A stretch of 64,000 nucleotides of DNA, taken from the NCBI RefSeq assembly GCF_023617305.1, contig NZ_CP081485.1, forward strand, positions 920,501-984,500. The letters are read 5' to 3'. The position numbers were made by a program, and so were the translations under genes. Below are positions 1 to 21,918 of the stretch, piece by piece. The notes beneath the pieces are model-generated. The model was not told where the DNA came from, did no database searches, and saw only the letters and a list, made by a program, of their open reading frames with translations. The stretch is from Methanobrevibacter sp. TLL-48-HuF1 (GTDB lineage Archaea; Methanobacteriota; Methanobacteria; Methanobacteriales; Methanobacteriaceae). Within the stretch, counting starts at the first letter, position 1; every line of letters begins with the position of its first letter.

Positions 1-1045
1 CCATTTCAATCAAACCTAAAATAATGACACAGCATAAAAATGCCAGAACAAATGTCAGTATTACAATTCCAACAAAATTATCTAAAAATGAAATATCCAC
101 AAATGTAGTTAATATAAGCAATAATGACTGGTTAAGCAAATAAACTCCGTAACATGCTCTACTAATTGTCATTACAGAATAATTGAACTTTTTGCTATTA
201 TGAATTCTTTTTAGAATCCTGTTGTTCTGGAGCTTTGGATCATTTAAATATTTAATCATTACAAACACTCCTGCCGCCTGCAGGATAGCTACCACACTTA
301 CATCTACATAGTTTTCTGTAAGGAAATTATAATGATGCAGGAATATTGTTTTCTGAATTCCATTTACAAATATATCAAAATTTATCATATAAGCTGTTGT
401 TATTAAAAATATGATAAATCCAACTAAAATCAGCCATTTGGATTTTACATTGAATTTATGATTTTCCAAATAATATCCCAGAAACATGTAAAGGATAGGG
501 CCTATGAAGAAAGTTAGATTAAAATAGGTTGGAGACCCGATATATGCAATTAGTTGATAGATAAGTGATGCAGATATTGCAAGGATAAGGAAATATTTTG
601 CACCTTTTAATTTTGTTGACCTAACATAAGGGGAAAATATAGGTAAAGACAGGTAAAGCCCAAGTAACATCCATGCATACCAATGCTGAGTCATGAATTT
701 AGATGCAAAATAAGCTACACATCCAAAGCTAAAGCTAAGCTTGCCTGCAGATGCCGTCATAAGTAAAGCCAGTAATGTATTCCAAATTAAAAAAGGAATG
801 AAAATCCTTAGAAAATCCGTTTTAATAAATGTTTCAATATCTGAGTAATCCCTGTCAATCATTAACAAACCTAAAAGCATGAGAAATATTGGAACACCGA
901 ATCCGAAAGTCGTAAAAACAACATATTCCTGTAAATTTCCTACACTTTTATACTTAAAAACCATAGCTACGTTTATTGCAATTAAGAAAAGTATACTGAC
1001 TGCCCTTAATTGATCAACATATATTATTCTTTCACCAATTTCCAT
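1..1045 (-). CDS. Acyltransferase-3 family membrane protein, C-terminus cut by window edge
   Basis: An open frame runs from an ATG at 1045 to the left edge without a stop, giving 348 residues. The start follows a GAGGG ribosome-binding site 9 nt upstream. The opening GERIIYVDQLRAVSILFLIA matches the first membrane helix of the acyltransferase-3 (OafA/YrhL-like) family. About ten hydrophobic segments follow, including QHWYAWMLLGLYLSLPIFSPY, which resembles the family's WFL-like central helix. Such proteins move acetyl or other acyl groups onto surface glycans or lipids, so it may decorate a cell-envelope polymer; the substrate is unknown. Family length is 340-380 aa, so only a short tail should be missing. 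It is divergent from the Nudix gene on its right. Family assignment is by eye and fairly sure; function is inferred. Confidence 0.8.
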   Translation of the reverse strand, partial: MEIGERIIYVDQLRAVSILFLIAINVAMVFKYKSVGNLQEYVVFTTFGFGVPIFLMLLGLLMIDRDYSDIETFIKTDFLRIFIPFLIWNTLLALLMTASAGKLSFSFGCVAYFASKFMTQHWYAWMLLGLYLSLPIFSPYVRSTKLKGAKYFLILAISASLIYQLIAYIGSPTYFNLTFFIGPILYMFLGYYLENHKFNVKSKWLILVGFIIFLITTAYMINFDIFVNGIQKTIFLHHYNFLTENYVDVSVVAILQAAGVFVMIKYLNDPKLQNNRILKRIHNSKKFNYSVMTISRACYGVYLLNQSLLLILTTFVDISFLDNFVGIVILTFVLAFLCCVIILGLIEM

Positions 1046-1207
1046 TGAACTTTACCCTCTTTAAAGTTGAACTATTAACTAATAATTAGTTATAAAATTT
1101 AATATATTATAAACATTACTCTTGAAATGATACTAAAAATGAACATAACAGATAAATCAAAATAATTAAATATCACCGTGGCAAACAGTAAAGCAGGTGG
1201 ATTTAAA

Positions 1208-1612
1208 ATGGACAAACCATATGGACTTACAATGAGAGGAATCGTTAAAAACAAAGATAATGAAATATTAATACTTAGAAGACATCCAAAATCCAGAACA
1301 AACCCTCACAAATGGGAATTGCCCGGAGGAAAAGTAGATCCCGGAGAATTTTTCGACGAAGCATTAGTACGTGAAATAAAAGAAGAAACTAATTTAGATG
1401 GAGCAGTTGGTGACTTTTATGAAGCAATACAAGATGATTATGTCCATAAAAGAACTGTTCAAGTTATTATGTATTTAAAAAATATCACAGGAAATGTAGC
1501 TATCAGTGATGAACATGATGACTGGATGTGGGCTAATTTAGAAAAAATAAAAACATTGGAATTGTCAACAGCATTTGAGAAAGTTTTAAAAAAGAAAAAT
1601 TGGAAAATTTAA
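1208..1612 (+). CDS. Nudix hydrolase
   Basis: A 134-residue Nudix-fold protein. The Nudix box is visible as GKVDPGEFFDEALVREIKEE, with the REIKEE metal-binding helix intact. Nudix enzymes hydrolyse nucleoside diphosphates linked to another moiety; the substrate cannot be read from the sequence. The frame is open back to a GTG at 1178, but GGTGG at 1196-1200 is a good ribosome-binding site 7 nt before the ATG at 1208, so I prefer 1208 (MDKPYGLTMRG). The 3' end overlaps the convergent argD gene by 4 nt, with no room for a terminator between them. An oxidised-nucleotide sanitation role (MutT-like) is possible but unproven. Confidence 0.85.
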   Translation: MDKPYGLTMRGIVKNKDNEILILRRHPKSRTNPHKWELPGGKVDPGEFFDEALVREIKEETNLDGAVGDFYEAIQDDYVHKRTVQVIMYLKNITGNVAISDEHDDWMWANLEKIKTLELSTAFEKVLKKKNWKI

Positions 1613-14740: not shown

Positions 14741-16579
14741 TTAATCTTTAAGCCTAACAATAGCTTCCTTAAAGAAATCAGGAATTAGAGAGCGGTATAA
14801 TGGGCTTTTAAGAATCATATTAATATCCGAATCTAAAACATAAGTATAACATGAATCATCTTCTGCACGCATTCCACGACCGTAAGCCTGCATAAGAGTC
14901 ATTACCGTTTTATATGCATACCATTTTTGGTCTCTTTTACGTCTCATATTAACCTGCTTATCTCCAAGATAAGGGAAAGGAATCTTATAAATAATCTGGA
15001 ATCTGCATTTATCATAAGGTAAATCCACACCTTCACTCATTGACGGAGATACCAAAACCAAAGGATTCTCATCTTTTTCAAAATAATTCAATACTTCTTC
15101 CCTATTTTTTGAAGTATGTGAAATTAACCTTGAATTAGGCAAATTCTGATTAATATATCTTTGACATTTATAACTGTTAGTATGAATCAGACCTTTGTCA
15201 TTTTTATGTTTTTCAAGAATCTTTTGTAAAATAGGAATTGTTTTAGGTGCAGTATTTTTAATTCTGTTTGCAGACATTTTACCTGCCAAATCTAAAATAA
15301 TAGGCCTTTTTTCTTTTGAAAATGGACTGTCAACTTTAATATGATACACTTCATTAGGATTTAAACCTAACCATTTTGAAAACATCTTATGGGAAAGAAT
15401 AGTTGCACTCATAAAGATAACAACATCACCATATTTTAACAAATAATCATTAGCATAGTGATGAACTCTTAATGGCTTAAATTCAACACCTTTCTCATCA
15501 GAATCAATAACCCAGTTTTTAGGTTCTTTTTCAAGGTTATTTTTAAGTGATTTAAGTCTTCCAATAGTTGATCTTATTCTTTCTGCCTTATTTTTAGAAA
15601 CATCTTTAATATTAATATCCTCATAGCTTTCTGTAATAGCTGCAATTTCCATTATCCAATCTTCAATCTCGCCATCTTCCAATGTTTCTTTAGAAATTAC
15701 CTTATTAATATCCTTTTCTAAACTATGATTAAATAAATCAACTTCCATTGTATTCATTAATTTGTTTTCAATATTGTGAGCCTCGTCTAAAATCAGTAAA
15801 GACCTTGTACCGAAATGTTTTACATAATTTAACTCTAAAATTCCATAATCATAGTTCATTAAAGTAATTGGAGAATTGACTGCATTTGCTTTTTGATTCC
15901 AATAATGGCAGTGCTGGCCAGACTGATAAAATATAGTTCCGCCATGAGAATCTTCAAAAGCCAATTCTGCATCCAAAGTTGGATTTTTAGCTACTCCATA
16001 TGGGCAAAAAAAGTTACTTGAAGTTGGAGATGTCTTACAAGTCCCCATATCACAGGTAGACTCCAAATTATCATTTAAACAGGCAAAATTCCGCCTACCT
16101 TTAACTAATGGGAAATCAAACTCATCAGCGTATTGGGCCTGTAACTGTTTTGTCATTGTTAAAATATAAGCAGAACCATACATTTTAGCTAGTGTTGTAG
16201 CTATTGCAGATTTACCTGTTCCAGTTCCTGCTTCTAAAACGATGTATTTATATCCCTGACGAATTGCATCATTAATATCCTGTATAATATCCAGCTGTCC
16301 CATCCTAGGTGTTTCAAAAGGGAAATTTTCAATTATGTCCCTTTCAATGTGAGGGCATTTTCCTTGAAGATATGAAACTGTATCTTCATTTAATCTATGA
16401 TCTTCAATAGAATAAACTTCAGGAATTTCATCATCTAAAATAGAAGAAGTTCTTGGCTTTTGAAAGCTAAATAAATCAACAGAATCCTCATCTGATGAAG
16501 AAACCTCATTATTTGAATGACTGCAAGTACAATTACTTTTTAACATACCACAATTTGGACAAAAAATAGAATTAGACAT
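14741..16579 (-). CDS. XPD/DinG-type superfamily-2 DNA helicase with Fe-S cysteines
   Basis: A 612-residue helicase of the Rad3/XPD-DinG family. An N-terminal zinc-ribbon-like CPNCGMLKSNCTC is followed by an acidic linker. The motor has Walker A AGTGTGKSAIATTLA, an insertion with spaced cysteines (FACLNDNLESTCDMGTC...FFCPY) in the position of the family's [4Fe-4S] domain, and a DEAH box LLILDEAHNIENK. Motifs V and VI are seen as VSPSMSEGVDLP and AYGRGMRAEDD. It should unwind DNA 5' to 3' in repair. ATG 16579 is preferred over the TTG three bases upstream. Its 5' flank runs into the left copy of the direct repeat. Confidence 0.88.
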   Translation of the reverse strand: MSNSIFCPNCGMLKSNCTCSHSNNEVSSSDEDSVDLFSFQKPRTSSILDDEIPEVYSIEDHRLNEDTVSYLQGKCPHIERDIIENFPFETPRMGQLDIIQDINDAIRQGYKYIVLEAGTGTGKSAIATTLAKMYGSAYILTMTKQLQAQYADEFDFPLVKGRRNFACLNDNLESTCDMGTCKTSPTSSNFFCPYGVAKNPTLDAELAFEDSHGGTIFYQSGQHCHYWNQKANAVNSPITLMNYDYGILELNYVKHFGTRSLLILDEAHNIENKLMNTMEVDLFNHSLEKDINKVISKETLEDGEIEDWIMEIAAITESYEDINIKDVSKNKAERIRSTIGRLKSLKNNLEKEPKNWVIDSDEKGVEFKPLRVHHYANDYLLKYGDVVIFMSATILSHKMFSKWLGLNPNEVYHIKVDSPFSKEKRPIILDLAGKMSANRIKNTAPKTIPILQKILEKHKNDKGLIHTNSYKCQRYINQNLPNSRLISHTSKNREEVLNYFEKDENPLVLVSPSMSEGVDLPYDKCRFQIIYKIPFPYLGDKQVNMRRKRDQKWYAYKTVMTLMQAYGRGMRAEDDSCYTYVLDSDINMILKSPLYRSLIPDFFKEAIVRLKD

Positions 16580-16887
16580 CAAACAATATATTAGTTACAA
16601 TACTATAAATAAATTATAGAAGTGCATATGAAAACTAATATTCACAAAAATTAAATCATAAAGATGATAATATTACCAATACTAAAAAAATATTAGGAAT
16701 GTGAAATAGTCACCACTGATTAGAAAGAAAAATTATTTATATACTTATAAAAAATAAACAAAAAACTGATTAATTAAATTAAAATTTATACACTTAACCA
16801 TAAAATATTAATAGCTACTTTTAATTTAAAGTGTAAAGTTTAATGTAAAGTTTTTTAGTTTCATGCAAAGTTTTTTTATGGAAAATT
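16580..16887. other. Gene-free 308-bp stretch: direct-repeat copy plus AT-rich DNA
   Basis: It holds the helicase leader, the left copy of the direct repeat (16597-16673), and the unique left end of the inserted segment. Near the right end three related words, TGTAAAGTTTAA (16832), TGTAAAGTTTTTTA (16844) and TGCAAAGTTTTTTT (16864), lie just after the stop of the frameshifted gene; read on the minus strand they are A-rich and end in AAACTTTRCA. A TATA-like word lies near 16736-16742. No gene was seen. Confidence 0.6.
16597..16673 (+). repeat. 77-bp direct repeat, left copy
   Basis: Matches 18460-18536 over 77 bp with two differences (16603 C against T; 16614 T against C); the last 59 bp (16615-16673) are identical. 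It starts 18 bp upstream of the helicase ATG. The right copy ends inside the ATG of cbiL, so this copy is a duplicated cbiL leader without the gene. It therefore carries the same TATA-like ACTATAAATAAA, pointing into the inserted segment. Confidence 0.9.
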
Positions 16888-18459
16888 TTATTTAACATAA
16901 TATATGTAAGATCTGCCCTTTTTTACTTTATTAATCAAATTTAAACTCTCTAATTTATTTAAATCTTTTGAAGCAGTAACTCTAGATATTTCAAAACAAT
17001 TTAAATAATTATTGATAGTGAAAGTTTTATTTTCATTAACCATTAATGCAAATGCTTTTATTTGTCTTTCATTTAAACCTAATTTATCCAAAGGGTTCCT
17101 ATTATTTTTATATAATTCTGGATCAATAGTATTTTCATCCCTTGCCCATAATGTTACTTTAAAAAATTCCCCCATTTCTTCAAATTTAGGTTCTTTTAAA
17201 CCTTCCTCCAACATGGTTTTTTTCATTCTTGAAATACCCGTCCCATAATGTTCCATATATCCTGTTTTTGAAAATATATCACATATTATTTTATTTCTAT
17301 GTAATGGATTAGCTGACTCTAAAGTGGCTATAGTTAATGGTGGAATTAATTTACCCGGACTTGTAATTTCTATCCTATTATCATATATATAAAATGTAAT
17401 GGGTGATGAATTTATTTTATAGTCTCTATGTGCTACTGCATTTACAATAGCTTCTCTTACAACTTCAAATGGATACTCATTAAGGTCTATCCTATCCATA
17501 CCTACTACCACGAACTAGTTTTTGTATTTCTACTGAAAAATAATCGAACATCCTCCATTAAATCAATTAACGTATTATATGAATTTTTTCTATCAATTAT
17601 ATCTGCCCTAGTTCCATTTTTAAATTTAGCCATTTTGATTTCATGAGGTATGTTAAATTTATTGATATTTTTAGCAAAGAATAACGCACCAGCATTATTA
17701 AAATGAAATATATTATTTTTCATACTACCTGCATTAATTATAGTTAACATTTCCTCAGGAGTTTTTTCTTCTTTTAATTGTTTTAAACTATTATTATTAA
17801 CCGATTTAAAAAAAAGATTATAAGAATCCATATCAATATCTTTAGAACTTGAATAATCAATTATTCTTTTATCAAAATCATTTTCAACTATCTGATTATG
17901 GAGAAAATGCGTCAAACTTTTTTTAATTTCTTTAATTAATACTTCAATAGTGCCAAATGGTTTATATATGTGATTATCACTTATCTTAGCAATAAATTTT
18001 TCAATTTTACCATCCCTTTTAACAGAATCTTTTATAAAAATAAATACCTCATTTGATTTTTCATTAAATAAATCATATTCTGTTTCAGTAGGAGATAAAC
18101 CCGTGTCTAATATTGTTCCATATTCAGACCCTATTAATCCAATATAAATATCTGAATCTAAAACATTTTTTCTCCAAGTATCATTTGGTGATTGTCCAGA
18201 AGAAGGAATATTTTCAAAGACAAAAACTTTAAAAAAATCATTAAGGAAATCATCGTTTTCAATCGTACTTACAATAGCTTCCCTTTCTTCTTTAAATTCG
18301 ACCATATTACTGCTGATAAAAACTTTATATGCCATTTAAACCACCAAATATATTATATATTTTAATAATTTTAAAATTTTATTTTTATATACTAATTTTA
18401 TTTATAAGAATAGATGAATATTATTCCTACTACTTTTCAAATACAAAAGTGTATTATAA
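16674..18459. mobile_element. Inserted cargo segment between direct repeats
   Basis: About 1.79 kb of unique sequence lies between the two repeat copies (repeat-start to repeat-start 1,863 bp). It separates the helicase gene from cbiL, which would otherwise be divergent neighbours with about 110 bp between them. It carries only one frameshifted gene, which is visibly more AT-rich than its neighbours. No integrase, transposase or terminal inverted repeat was seen, so how it arrived is unknown. The duplication of the flank shows it is an insertion or a tandem-duplication derivative. Confidence 0.6.
16888..18335 (-). pseudogene. Frameshifted DUF4062 - GHKL ATPase - wHTH gene
   Basis: Two adjoining frames, 17505-18335 (276 aa) and 16888-17511 (207 aa), make one multidomain protein of about 480 aa. 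The first starts MAYKVFISSNMVEFKEERE, a DUF4062 (TIR-like fold) N-terminus to about residue 150, and continues with NNAGALFFAKNINKF, the region that precedes the ATPase in AlbA_2/Schlafen-type proteins; the AlbA_2 module itself is absent. The second has EYPFEVVREAIVNAVAHRDY, ITSPGKLIPP and EHYGTGISRMKK of the HATPase_c_4 domain, then a winged helix. The join at 17512-17513 has two bases where a codon is expected, so one nucleotide is missing. Start: GGTGG at 18341-18345. Programmed frameshifting or a sequencing error remain possible. Confidence 0.8.
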
Positions 18460-18536
18460 ACAATATTATAAATAAACTATAGAAGTGCATATGAAAACTA
18501 ATATTCACAAAAATTAAATCATAAAGATGATAATAT
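18460..18536 (+). repeat. 77-bp direct repeat, right copy (cbiL leader)
   Basis: Right partner of 16597-16673. It holds the TATA-like word near 18465-18475 and the whole cbiL leader down to the first two bases of its ATG. It also contains a 7-codon ATG frame (MKTNIHKN) ahead of cbiL, present in both copies. Confidence 0.9.
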
Positions 18537-19239
18537 GGCGAAAAAAGGAAAGTTAATTGGAATTGGTGTTGGACCTGGAGATACAGAATTACTTACTTTA
18601 AAGGCAGCTAAAGTTTTAGAAAGTGTGCCAGTAATATTCTCACCAAAATCAGCAAAAGAAAAGAAAAGTATAGCATTATCAATTGTAACACCAATTTTAG
18701 AAAAAAGACAGGATTATAAAAGATTAATGGTTGTAGAACCTTTATTCCCAATGATTGAAGATAAACAGGAGCTTGAAAAATATTGGAATAGTGCTGCAGA
18801 ATTAATAGCTAACTATTTAGATAGCGGAAGGGATGTGGCTTTTATAACTCTTGGAGATCCTTCAATATTCAGTACTTATTCATATACTCAAAAGAAACTG
18901 GCTAATAATTATGAAATAGAAACAATACCTGGAATTACTTCATTTACTGCTTGTGCAGCTGCTAAAAATGAACCATTAGTTGAAAAAAATGACATATTAA
19001 CTATTGTTCCAAAAATAGATGACAGACTAGACAATTTCCTGGAACACAGCGATTCAATTGTTTTAATGAAAGCTTCAAGAAATCCAAAAGAATTAGAATC
19101 AGCTATCGATGAAAAAAACAGACCTAAAGAAGTATTTTCAGTACAAAATTGTACCAGAGAAAATGAAAAAATAGTGGAAGGTTTCTCAACTGAAAAACCA
19201 TACCTTACAACAACTATAATCAAATTTACAGATGACTAA
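18535..19239 (+). CDS. cbiL: Cobalt-factor II / precorrin-2 C20-methyltransferase
   Basis: A 234-residue SAM-dependent tetrapyrrole methylase that methylates C20 in anaerobic cobalamin synthesis, needed by methanogens for methyl transfer. The family signature GIGVGPGDTELLTLKAAKVL is at residues 9-28, the second motif FITLGDPSIFSTYSY is in the middle, and ETIPGITSFTACAA follows. Length fits CbiL/CobI. Its leader lies wholly inside the right copy of the direct repeat; the ribosome-binding site is weak (GATGAT). It converges on the regulator gene with a 4-nt overlap. No other cobalamin gene is nearby. Confidence 0.92.
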   Translation: MAKKGKLIGIGVGPGDTELLTLKAAKVLESVPVIFSPKSAKEKKSIALSIVTPILEKRQDYKRLMVVEPLFPMIEDKQELEKYWNSAAELIANYLDSGRDVAFITLGDPSIFSTYSYTQKKLANNYEIETIPGITSFTACAAAKNEPLVEKNDILTIVPKIDDRLDNFLEHSDSIVLMKASRNPKELESAIDEKNRPKEVFSVQNCTRENEKIVEGFSTEKPYLTTTIIKFTDD

Positions 19240-20003
19240 ATTTCTTTAGGTTTGAAAGGCTCAACTTCAAAAACACAGTTTTCATCACCCATTGTACAAC
19301 ATTGAATTTCGATTACACGAACAGGTAATCCGAAAAATTCACTAAACAATGCTTGAAAAATACCTGTATCCAAATAACATGCAGGTTTTCCTGTTTTTGG
19401 AAGTAATTCGCATTCAAAACAGTCCGCAGCTGTGATTTTGATAATTTGACCTAATTTAAAAGATAATTTACCTAAACCTTTGGTTTCCCAAAATTCAGCA
19501 ATATTTCCTATAAACACCTCCAAATCATCATCATACAACTTATTATATAAAGATTGACCCATACGTATTCCTGTAGAATGCAATACCGGATCAATGTTTA
19601 TTCCTTCCTGTATAAGCATTGATCTCAAAGTATGAAATAATAAAACTGTAAAATCTCCATCATTTTCAACAATATTCTCAATTAAATATTCAGCTCTTGT
19701 TTCTTCAATTTCATTTTTCTTTGATACTTCTACAGAACCAAGATATTTTGAATTTAAATAAAAAATTTTTCTTCTGCTGTCTGACTCGCCTAATCTGTAT
19801 GAGATTATTCCATCTTCCCGTAAACTTTTTAAATGTACAGAAATTGTAGATTTTGATTTACCCGTATTTCTAACAATTTCATCAAATTCCATGTCATTGC
19901 TACGAAGCATTTCCAAAATTGTAAGTTTGACTGGGCTTTTAACAACATCAATACCCATATCCGCATCTTTAGAAAATATCTGAAGTGGTTTTTGTTTAAT
20001 CAT
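19236..20003 (-). CDS. msvR: MsvR-like redox regulator: HTH plus V4R domain
   Basis: A 255-residue regulator. An ArsR-like winged helix occupies about 24-95 (KLTILEMLRSNDMEFDEIV, then SKSTISVHLKSLREDGIISY). The C-terminal half is a V4R domain with cysteines that could sense redox or bind metal: ADCFECELLPKTGKPACYLD and QCCTMGDENCVFEVEP. This matches MsvR, the methanogen-specific V4R regulator that controls the F420H2 oxidase operon in Methanothermobacter (established knowledge, from memory). The divergent partner here is that same oxidase gene, which strengthens the call. GGAG at 20012-20015 precedes the ATG. It probably represses its own gene and the oxidase when reduced. Confidence 0.85.
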   Translation of the reverse strand: MIKQKPLQIFSKDADMGIDVVKSPVKLTILEMLRSNDMEFDEIVRNTGKSKSTISVHLKSLREDGIISYRLGESDSRRKIFYLNSKYLGSVEVSKKNEIEETRAEYLIENIVENDGDFTVLLFHTLRSMLIQEGINIDPVLHSTGIRMGQSLYNKLYDDDLEVFIGNIAEFWETKGLGKLSFKLGQIIKITAADCFECELLPKTGKPACYLDTGIFQALFSEFFGLPVRVIEIQCCTMGDENCVFEVEPFKPKEI

Positions 20004-20016
20004 TAAAAATATCTCC

Positions 20017-20038
20017 GTTTGTAACTATACTAACAAAC
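20017..20038. promoter_or_regulatory. Palindrome in the msvR-like promoter
   Basis: A 22-bp imperfect palindrome with arms GTTTGT and ACAAAC and a mostly symmetric centre. It lies between the regulator's ribosome-binding site and a leftward TATA-like word (20042-20051), so it covers the expected start of transcription of the regulator. It is a candidate autoregulatory operator. Confidence 0.5.
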
Positions 20039-20133
20039 TAAATTTATATAAGTATAATATAATATTCGTATCTAATAAAATTAACCCTTCATTTATAAAA
20101 TGTTCAACTTAAGGATATATCAAAGACCCAATA

Positions 20134-20144
20134 AATTTATATAT
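20134..20144 (+). promoter_or_regulatory. TATA box of the F420H2 oxidase gene
   Basis: The word AAATTTATATA lies 85-95 nt before the oxidase ATG. With usual archaeal spacing, transcription would begin near 20165-20170, directly before the operator-like palindrome. Confidence 0.5.
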
Positions 20145-20170
20145 TAGTTCATACATAATACAATTTTAAT

Positions 20171-20189
20171 CATGCGAATTATTCGTATG
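20171..20189. promoter_or_regulatory. Palindromic operator candidate before the F420H2 oxidase gene
   Basis: CATGCGAAT-T-ATTCGTATG is a 19-bp palindrome with one mismatched pair. It lies just downstream of the expected transcription start. A matching half-site ATTCGTA occurs at 20064-20070. From memory, published MsvR boxes are built of TTCGTA/TACGAA half-sites; the same hexamers occur here, but with the arms in the opposite order. Confidence 0.6.
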
Positions 20190-20229
20190 AAATAAAACAA
20201 AATTCAAAAAGACATATAAGGCGATTCAA

Positions 20230-21456
20230 ATGAAAGCAAATGCTCAAAAAATCGGTGATGGAGTATATTGGATTGGTGTACTCGATTGGGACTTAAGAAG
20301 TTACCATGGATACACTTTAGACGGAACAACCTATAATGCATACATTGTATTTGGTGAAGACCACGTAGCTGTTATTGATAATGCTTACCCTGGTAAAACT
20401 CAAGAAATGATGGCACGTATTGAAGATGCTTTCGCACAAGAAGGCAGAGATGAAGTAGTTGTAGATTACATTATTCAAAATCACGTTGAAAAAGATCACT
20501 CAGGAGTTCTTGTAGATTTACATAAAAGATTCCCTGAAGCACCAATTTACTGTTCAGAAATTGCTGTAAAAGGTCTTTTAAAACATTATCCTGCATTAGA
20601 AGGTGCAGAATTTGTTACTGTAGGTACAGGCGACACTTTAGAAATGGATGGCAGAACCTTTGCATTTTTAGATGCATTCTTATTACACTGGCCTGACAGT
20701 ATGTTTACCTTACTTGTAGAGGATGGAATTTTATTCCCAAATGACGCATTCGGTCAACATTTATGTTTCACAAAAAGATTCGACCACGAAGTTCCAGAAT
20801 ATGTGTTAATGGATGCTGCACAAAAATTCTATGCTAACTTAATCACTCCACTTTCCAAACTTGTTCTTAAAAAATTAAACGAAGTAGTGGAATTAGGTTT
20901 ACTTGAACAAATCAAAATGATTGCACCATCCCACGGTCAAATCTGGACTGACCCAATGAAAATTATCGGAGCTTATACTGACTGGGCACAAGGTGTATGT
21001 GAAGACAAAATTACAATTGTCTACGATACTATGCACTACTCTACCCAAAAAATGGCTCATGAATTAGCTGAAGGTGCTATATCTGAAGGTTACGATGTTG
21101 AAATATTCTACTTGCACGAAGATGAAAGAAGTGAAATCGTTAAAAGTATTTTAACCAGTAAAGGAATAGCTATCGGAGATCCTACCATTAATGACGAACC
21201 ATACCCAAGTATTGGGGACATCATGTACTACTTAAAAGGTCTTAGATTTGATAAAACAAACATTAACAGAAAAGCTGTCACATTTGGTTCCATGGGTGGA
21301 AAAGGAGGAACTGCTAAAAAACTCGCTGAAAAACTTGAAAATTACGGATTTGACGTAGTGGACTCTCAAGAAATTTATTACATCCCAACTGAAGAAGAAA
21401 ATATTGACAGCTATGAGTTAGGAAAAACTTTAGCTAAAGCATGTAAAGAATTATAA
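20230..21456 (+). CDS. fpaA: F420H2 oxidase (flavodiiron protein)
   Basis: A 408-residue A-type flavodiiron protein that reduces oxygen to water with F420H2. The N-terminal metallo-beta-lactamase domain has diiron ligands H85-x-E87-x-D89 in [10 protein letters not shown]153, D172 and H235. The C-terminal flavodoxin domain begins [16 protein letters not shown] (261) and binds [14 protein letters not shown] is near its end. GGCGA precedes the ATG by 5 nt. It is divergent from the MsvR-like gene and followed by a rubrerythrin-like gene, as in the Methanothermobacter oxidative-stress operon. A nitric-oxide reductase role is possible in the family, but context favours oxygen defence. Confidence 0.93.
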
Positions 21457-21504
21457 AATATGAAATATAAATTTATTAATTACTAATAATTGGAGGTTAT
21501 TATT

Positions 21505-21918
21505 ATGATTAAATACGAACATAAAATAGGTAGTACTGTTGGTACTGGAGTAGAAAAAGAAGTGCAAAACAATTTCAACGGAGAAACCCAAGAAGTAGGT
21601 ATGTACTTAGCTATGTCTAGACAAGCATCAAGGTCTGGTTATGGGGAATTAGCTGAAGTATTCAAAAGATTAGCTTGGGAAGAAGCAGAACACGCAGCAA
21701 GATTCTGTGAAATGAACGGAATCATTAAAGATGATCTCAAAGCTAACATTGAAATGATGTTAGAAGGAGAAAAAATGGCTAATGCTGAAAAAAGAGAAGC
21801 TTCTGAAAAAGCAGCTAGTGAAAACCTTGAAGACGCTACTGACTTCTTCAAAGAAAGTTCCAAAGATGAAGGACGTCACTACAAAATCTTAGAAGGAATT
21901 TTAGAAAGATACTTCTAA
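21505..21918 (+). CDS. Rubrerythrin-like diiron protein without rubredoxin domain
   Basis: A 137-residue ferritin-like four-helix protein. The diiron ligands are visible as GETQE (26-30), the ExxH of WEEAEH (58-63) and EGRH near the C-terminus. It ends in ILERYF and lacks the C-terminal rubredoxin-type CxxC domain, so it would need an outside electron donor to reduce peroxide. GGAGG at 21492-21496 sits 8 nt before ATG 21505, making this the start rather than the TTG at 21490. It follows the F420H2 oxidase by 48 nt and probably shares its regulated transcript. Confidence 0.9.

What the first reader, a model, noticed from the sequence alone, without database searches (positions are those of the whole stretch)
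16597..18536. 77-bp duplicated flank around a small cargo insertion
Two copies of a 77-bp sequence (75 of 77 identical, last 59 identical) bracket a 1.79-kb segment between a helicase gene and cbiL. The right copy is the real cbiL leader; the left copy is an orphan leader ending 18 bp before the helicase ATG. The segment therefore entered by a process that duplicated 60-77 bp of target, far longer than most transposons make. No integrase or transposase lies inside. Options: recombination between an attachment-like site and an element lost later, homologous capture of a DNA circle carrying the same leader, or a helper-dependent mobile cassette.
Basis: partly seen in the sequence, partly recalled or inferred. 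Interest (0 to 1): 0.7.

Follow-up and report, generated by a model that had tools for sequence, protein, structure and literature searches.

The report
Foreign defence gene inserted beside cbiL
A gut methanogen gained one foreign, now broken, antiviral-type gene between two housekeeping genes, and in the process the shared promoter between those genes was copied so that both still have one; it is a clear but apparently one-off accident of recombination, not a demonstrated mobile element.

Summary
Two copies of the helicase/cbiL intergenic leader (77 bp, 75 identical, last 59 identical) flank 1.79 kb of AT-richer DNA, against at most 18 identical bp by chance. It is an insertion: all Methanobrevibacter loci that could be read across the site, and several other Methanobacteriales, have helicase and cbiL divergent with one leader. 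The nearest relative (93-94% nucleotide identity, almost certainly M. smithii ATCC 35061) has the exact empty site, identical to the left copy. So the left copy is no orphan: it is the native bidirectional promoter. The right copy carries the only differences, both in the 18 bp beside the insert. The cargo is one gene: a TIR-like DUF4062 / HATPase_c_4 / winged-helix protein, split by a frameshift, of a family scattered in 24 of 67 genus genomes, elsewhere without flanking long repeats. No hotspot, integrase, terminal repeats or second such event was found in about 0.9 Mb of this genome. Best reading: a single acquisition by short-homology or illegitimate recombination with DNA carrying a slightly diverged leader; a lost integrase is possible but unsupported. 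Far more striking, seen in passing: a Cas1-Cas2-only locus in this genus whose 36-38-bp repeats are separated by 0.24-4.3 kb of captured DNA.

The parts
14741..16582 (-). DinG/Rad3-like DEAD_2 helicase gene, left host flank (ATG at 16577-16579)
   Evidence: Pfam Helicase_C_2/DEAD_2; orthologue beside cbiL in relatives
16597..16673 (.). Left leader copy: native helicase/cbiL bidirectional promoter region, identical to the empty site of the sister species
   Evidence: alignment with G043; 217-bp identical run across the rejoined flanks
16603..16619 (.). CTATAA-ATAAA-TTATAG dyad, conserved in many Methanobrevibacter species; probably the TATA region of both divergent genes (inferred)
   Evidence: intergenic sequences of relatives; both mismatches of the right copy fall in it
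16615..16673 (.). 59-bp exact core of the duplication, left
16674..18459 (.). Inserted DNA (about 1.79 kb, GC 24% against 31% for the window)
   Evidence: absent from all relatives at this site; GC
16888..17511 (-). 3' part of the cargo gene: HATPase_c_4 + winged helix (207 aa)
   Evidence: Pfam PF13749 E 1.5e-24; alignment to intact homologues
17505..18335 (-). 5' part of the cargo gene: DUF4062 (TIR-like) + linker (276 aa); frameshift at about 17505-17511 separates it from the 3' part
   Evidence: Pfam PF13271 E 7e-19; KpSwz structure 10wc E 2.6e-8; nine uninterrupted homologues of 466-485 aa
18460..18536 (.). Right leader copy, serving cbiL; differs from the native sequence at 18466 and 18477
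18478..18536 (.). 59-bp exact core of the duplication, right
18535..19239 (+). cbiL (precorrin-2/cobalt-factor II C20-methyltransferase), right host flank
   Evidence: TIGR01467 231.7 bits against cut-off 163

Best explanation
A single foreign gene (DUF4062/TIR-like - HATPase_c_4 - winged helix, a predicted defence or regulatory protein) entered the helicase-cbiL intergenic region in this species' lineage after it split from M. smithii. Shown: empty ancestral site, duplication of 59-77 bp of it, native left copy, differences confined to the insert-side end of the right copy, foreign-like composition, frameshifted cargo. Inferred: entry by a one-time recombination in which one end was joined through the short homology of the leader (about 59 bp, on incoming DNA that already carried a slightly diverged leader copy, either a circle by single crossover or a linear fragment with one homologous and one illegitimate end). 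The outcome was tolerated because each divergent gene kept a full promoter copy; the right copy, being bidirectional, may also transcribe the leftward cargo gene. The cargo then lost its frame.
For: Empty site in the sister genome and in every locus readable across it. Left copy identical to the sister over the whole intergenic region, inside a 217-bp identical run, although its cbiL half has been idle since insertion: the insertion is recent. Yet the right copy has 2 differences, both in the 18 bp next to the insert (P 0.05 within the 77 bp, 0.013 with both copies pooled, 0.004 with the flanking identical block; post hoc), so they more likely came with the incoming DNA than by drift. The 59-bp core is particular to this species pair, so the homologous end came from within the clade. 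No integrase, terminal repeats, hotspot or second event.
Against: No donor molecule or donor locus was found: no virus contig holds the left junction or the core, and phage and plasmid records hold no close cargo homologue. 59 bp is short for efficient homologous recombination. Relaxed selection on the helicase-facing half of the right copy could also explain two substitutions. Donor DNA with the cargo already next to this leader needs an earlier joining event, which pushes the question back one step.
Confidence: 0.5

Rival explanations
1. Target-duplicating break repair: two nicks about 77 bp apart gave a long staggered break; a foreign fragment was ligated in and fill-in copied the leader on both sides, with the two differences from error-prone synthesis or later drift.
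For: Gives an insertion with a duplication of arbitrary length, without an enzyme encoded inside, as a one-off; needs no donor leader.
Against: Predicts identical copies at birth; the differences sit only beside the insert while 217 bp of rejoined flank and the rest of both copies are unchanged. The duplication covers nearly the whole divergent promoter, which selection could equally explain.
Confidence: 0.25
2. Site-specific integration: the repeats are attL/attR of a small element whose integrase was lost or acts from elsewhere; the attP copy carries the two mismatches and restores the cbiL promoter.
For: Long direct repeats with slightly different attP-like and attB-like ends and a restored host gene are typical of integrase-made islands; three tyrosine recombinases exist elsewhere in the genome.
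Against: The site is empty in all relatives read; no integrase or remnant inside; no tRNA gene or Rfam RNA at the repeat; no third copy of the repeat in the genome.
Confidence: 0.18
3. Off-target insertion by the genus's unusual Cas1-Cas2, which places 0.24-4.3-kb DNA segments between exact copies of its own repeat.
For: This genome has such a locus; the 1.79-kb insert is in its size range.
Against: That enzyme's repeat is 37 bp in this genome, not 59-77; cbiL leader and CRISPR-like repeat look unrelated; no cas1 beside DUF4062 homologues.
Confidence: 0.03
4. Old tandem duplication of the leader or an assembly artefact, with no insertion.
For: None found.
Against: Empty site in the sister species and all relatives read; single-contig genome of 99.95% completeness; unique gene between the copies.
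Confidence: 0.02

Closest known systems
Homology-facilitated illegitimate recombination / short-homology gene capture (known from natural transformation in bacteria; own knowledge)
   Same: Foreign DNA inserted with one homologous and one non-homologous junction, no recombinase inside, variable duplication or deletion at the target.
   Different: Not shown in Methanobrevibacter; donor unknown; homology here only about 59 bp.
Strain-specific insertions and repeat-bounded indels of Haloquadratum walsbyi (PMC3119063)
   Same: Archaeal lineage-specific genes at exactly mappable places, bounded by direct repeats with one copy in the other strain; mechanism undetermined.
   Different: There the repeats of such indels are 4-19 bp and many insertions replace DNA; here 59-77 bp and nothing was lost.
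Integrase-made genomic islands
   Same: Long direct repeats at the ends, host gene restored.
   Different: No integrase, no tRNA target, site otherwise never used.
Swarozyc (DUF4062 TIR-like NADase antiphage systems; PMC13174449)
   Same: Cargo N-terminus is a DUF4062 domain with a sequence match to KpSwz 10wc; patchy, apparently transferred distribution.
   Different: Cargo joins DUF4062 to HATPase_c_4 and a winged helix; activity untested; the gene is frameshifted.

Membership tests
Transposon / IS / MITE insertion | transposase inside or terminal inverted repeats at the ends | tested here: not met
   No such ORF; no inverted repeat at the insert ends in the repeat search or by eye
Transposon / IS / MITE insertion | short target duplication (about 2-15 bp) | tested here: not met
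   59-77 bp
Integrase-made genomic island | direct repeats att-left/att-right with an empty attB elsewhere | tested here: met
Integrase-made genomic island | integrase in the element | tested here: not met
Integrase-made genomic island | site used repeatedly, different cargo in relatives | tested here: not met
   only empty sites in relatives readable across it
Integrase-made genomic island | excised circular form | not testable with these tools
   needs DNA from the strain
Casposon or Cas1-mediated insertion | duplication equal to the enzyme's fixed target (14-15 bp for casposons from own knowledge, 37 bp for this genome's Cas1 locus) | tested here: not met
   59-77 bp against 37 bp
Swarozyc / DUF4062 defence protein | DUF4062 TIR-like domain | tested here: met
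   PF13271 68 bits, cut-off 24.7; KpSwz match
Swarozyc / DUF4062 defence protein | conserved catalytic glutamate | tested here: inconclusive
   a Glu in an SxTE motif is invariant in the family and aligned to a KpSwz Glu; that it is the catalytic one was not checked
Swarozyc / DUF4062 defence protein | NADase activity and antiphage protection | not testable with these tools
   gene is frameshifted here; no assay

The most novel reading that the evidence does not exclude
A trans-acting recombinase of this genus (a helper integrase that recognises divergent promoters, or its kilobase-DNA-capturing Cas1-Cas2) moves single genes into promoter regions while copying the promoter, so that neither neighbour is silenced.
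Probability: 0.06. Interest if true: 0.75.

Novelty: new member of a known kind. Interest (0 to 1): 0.33.

Why it matters
It is a clean, relatively datable case of how an archaeon gains a single defence-type gene without a visible mobile element and without harming its neighbours: nearly the whole divergent promoter was duplicated. The exact empty site in the sister species makes the event testable at base resolution. It does not reveal a new system by itself.

Tried and rejected
Hotspot or alternative cargo at the site: none in the relatives. Long repeats around the other DUF4062-HATPase genes: none in 20 loci; one 34-bp, 85% match in L151 is low-complexity AT sequence. Cargo on phages, plasmids or virus contigs: none, or only weak DUF4062 matches of about 25-35% identity. 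Left junction or core in virus contigs: none. tRNA or Rfam RNA at the repeats: none. Other similar events in about 0.9 Mb of the genome: a 40-bp pair at 71523/73373 is the promoter region of paralogous TPR genes; the 93-103-kb family is the Cas1 array. Homology continuing beyond the core (12/21 left, 16/30 right; genome-wide P about 0.01 and 0.003-0.006) is suggestive but was chosen after the fact and is not relied on. A model of an intact homologue was only moderate (pLDDT 67.5, pTM 0.42) and was not used.

Full report
Observation. The two copies are at 16597-16673 and 18460-18536; 75 of 77 bases agree and the last 59 (16615-16673, 18478-18536) are identical. Dinucleotide-preserving shuffles of the region never gave an exact repeat above 18. 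No other direct repeat of >=40 bp and >=85% identity within 10 kb exists in the window, and the leader has only these two copies in the 1.95-Mb genome.

It is an insertion. In the Methanobrevibacter genomes where both genes could be read, and in several other Methanobacteriales, the helicase and cbiL are divergent neighbours separated by one intergenic region, 55-133 bp wherever both starts could be placed. The closest genome held, G043, has 1,853,160 bases, the length I remember for M. smithii ATCC 35061 (own knowledge). It matches the window at 93-94% on both sides and has the empty site. Its intergenic sequence is identical to the left copy throughout, and when the host flanks are rejoined the identical run is 217 bp in a background of about 93.7%. 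The left copy is therefore the native divergent promoter, not an orphan leader.

Age and direction. The cbiL-facing half of the left copy has had no cbiL to serve since the insertion, yet it has no change against the sister species, so the insertion is recent. The right copy has two changes, both within the 18 bp that touch the insert, and both inside the CTATAA-ATAAA-TTATAG dyad. Under uniform drift the chance of that placement is 0.05 within the copy, 0.013 over both copies and 0.004 with the identical flank included; these are post hoc figures. I read the changes as probably brought by the incoming DNA, which favours recombination with a slightly diverged leader over copying at a staggered break, but not decisively.

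Cargo. The segment has GC 24% (gene 26%) against 31% and holds one gene read leftwards in two overlapping ORFs: DUF4062 plus linker (17505-18335) and HATPase_c_4 plus winged helix (16888-17511). Nine homologues from the genus are single uninterrupted proteins of 466-485 residues, and the two ORFs tile them end to end, so a frameshift at about 17505-17511 (or a sequencing error there) splits the gene. The family occurs in 24 of 67 genus genomes at under 50% identity, without long flanking repeats in 20 loci examined. DUF4062 matches the solved KpSwz protein (10wc), which a 2026 preprint describes as a TIR-like NADase of an antiphage system (PMC13174449). Defence is thus the likely role of the intact family, but the HATPase_c_4/winged-helix part is not covered by that work as far as I read it, and activity is untested.

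Mechanism. No transposase or integrase, no tRNA target, no second user of the site and no similar event in about 0.9 Mb of this genome argue against a dedicated mobile element. The most economical account is one recombination event through a short stretch of leader homology with an illegitimate or circular partner. The result survived because each neighbour kept a full promoter. Break repair with fill-in is the main rival; integration by a lost integrase is third.

A second matter found while sampling the genome. At G000:C1:93,156-102,958 twelve copies of a 37-bp repeat (the distal one degenerate, as in CRISPR arrays) are separated by 414-2623 bp, directly beside cas1 and cas2; the ORFs listed beyond cas2 show no obvious effector cas gene (by eye). 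This is the only cas1 in the genome. Two of the long segments are near-exact copies of this genome's own chromosome: 525/529 of window 753-1281 and 498/499 of 1,382,517-1,383,015, neither flanked by the repeat at the source; a third resembles DNA at 218.7 kb at 87.5%. The same layout stands next to the homologous cas1 in M. smithii and in six other genomes examined, with inter-repeat segments of 240-4299 bp; 38 segments were taken from the eight loci. Full-text searches found no description, but subscription journals are mostly missing from that library. This looks like Cas1-Cas2 storing gene-sized DNA and deserves its own study; its 37-bp duplication does not fit the cbiL insertion.

Noticed in passing
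G000:C1:93156-104358 (L170:13156-20000 and L171:1-4358): CRISPR-like array beside the genome's only cas1 and a cas2, no effector cas genes seen nearby: twelve 37-bp repeats separated by 414-2623 bp of captured DNA holding whole or partial genes (Mu F-like protein, ion channel, acyltransferase, adhesin fragments). Possibly a Cas1-Cas2 system that stores kilobase DNA.
   Followed up: partly
L226:11003-16374 (G043, probably M. smithii); L228, L230, L231, L234, L237, L238: Same layout beside homologous cas1 in seven further Methanobrevibacter genomes: repeats of about 36-38 bp spaced 0.24-4.3 kb apart, starting next to cas1; 38 long segments from the eight loci including G000, some with full genes such as a DNA ligase-like and an SDR dehydrogenase-like protein.
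   Followed up: partly
window 753-1281: Source of one long array segment: 525 of 529 bases are found in inverse orientation at G000:C1:96957-97485 between two repeats; the window copy has no repeat at its ends.
   Followed up: yes
L239:6010-6453 (G043:C1:1372009-1372452): Array segment 3 of this genome (94803-95436) is 99% identical over 444 bp to chromosomal DNA of the sister species just beyond the point, near window 21980, where the two genomes stop aligning.
   Followed up: partly
window 19663-21662: About 2 kb at 96.5-100% identity to the sister species in a 92-94% background: probably a recent recombination tract between the two species, or strong conservation.
   Followed up: no
G000:C1:661984-662490 (L163) and G043:C1:514726-514998 (L241): A second DUF4062-family gene shared by both species; its 5' part and neighbourhood are masked as N, which creates the apparent giant open frames.
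   Followed up: partly
G000:C1:261604-262977 and 292362-293732: Two 99.6% identical copies of about 1.37 kb that look like a transposase element near an integrase gene at 264103.
   Followed up: no
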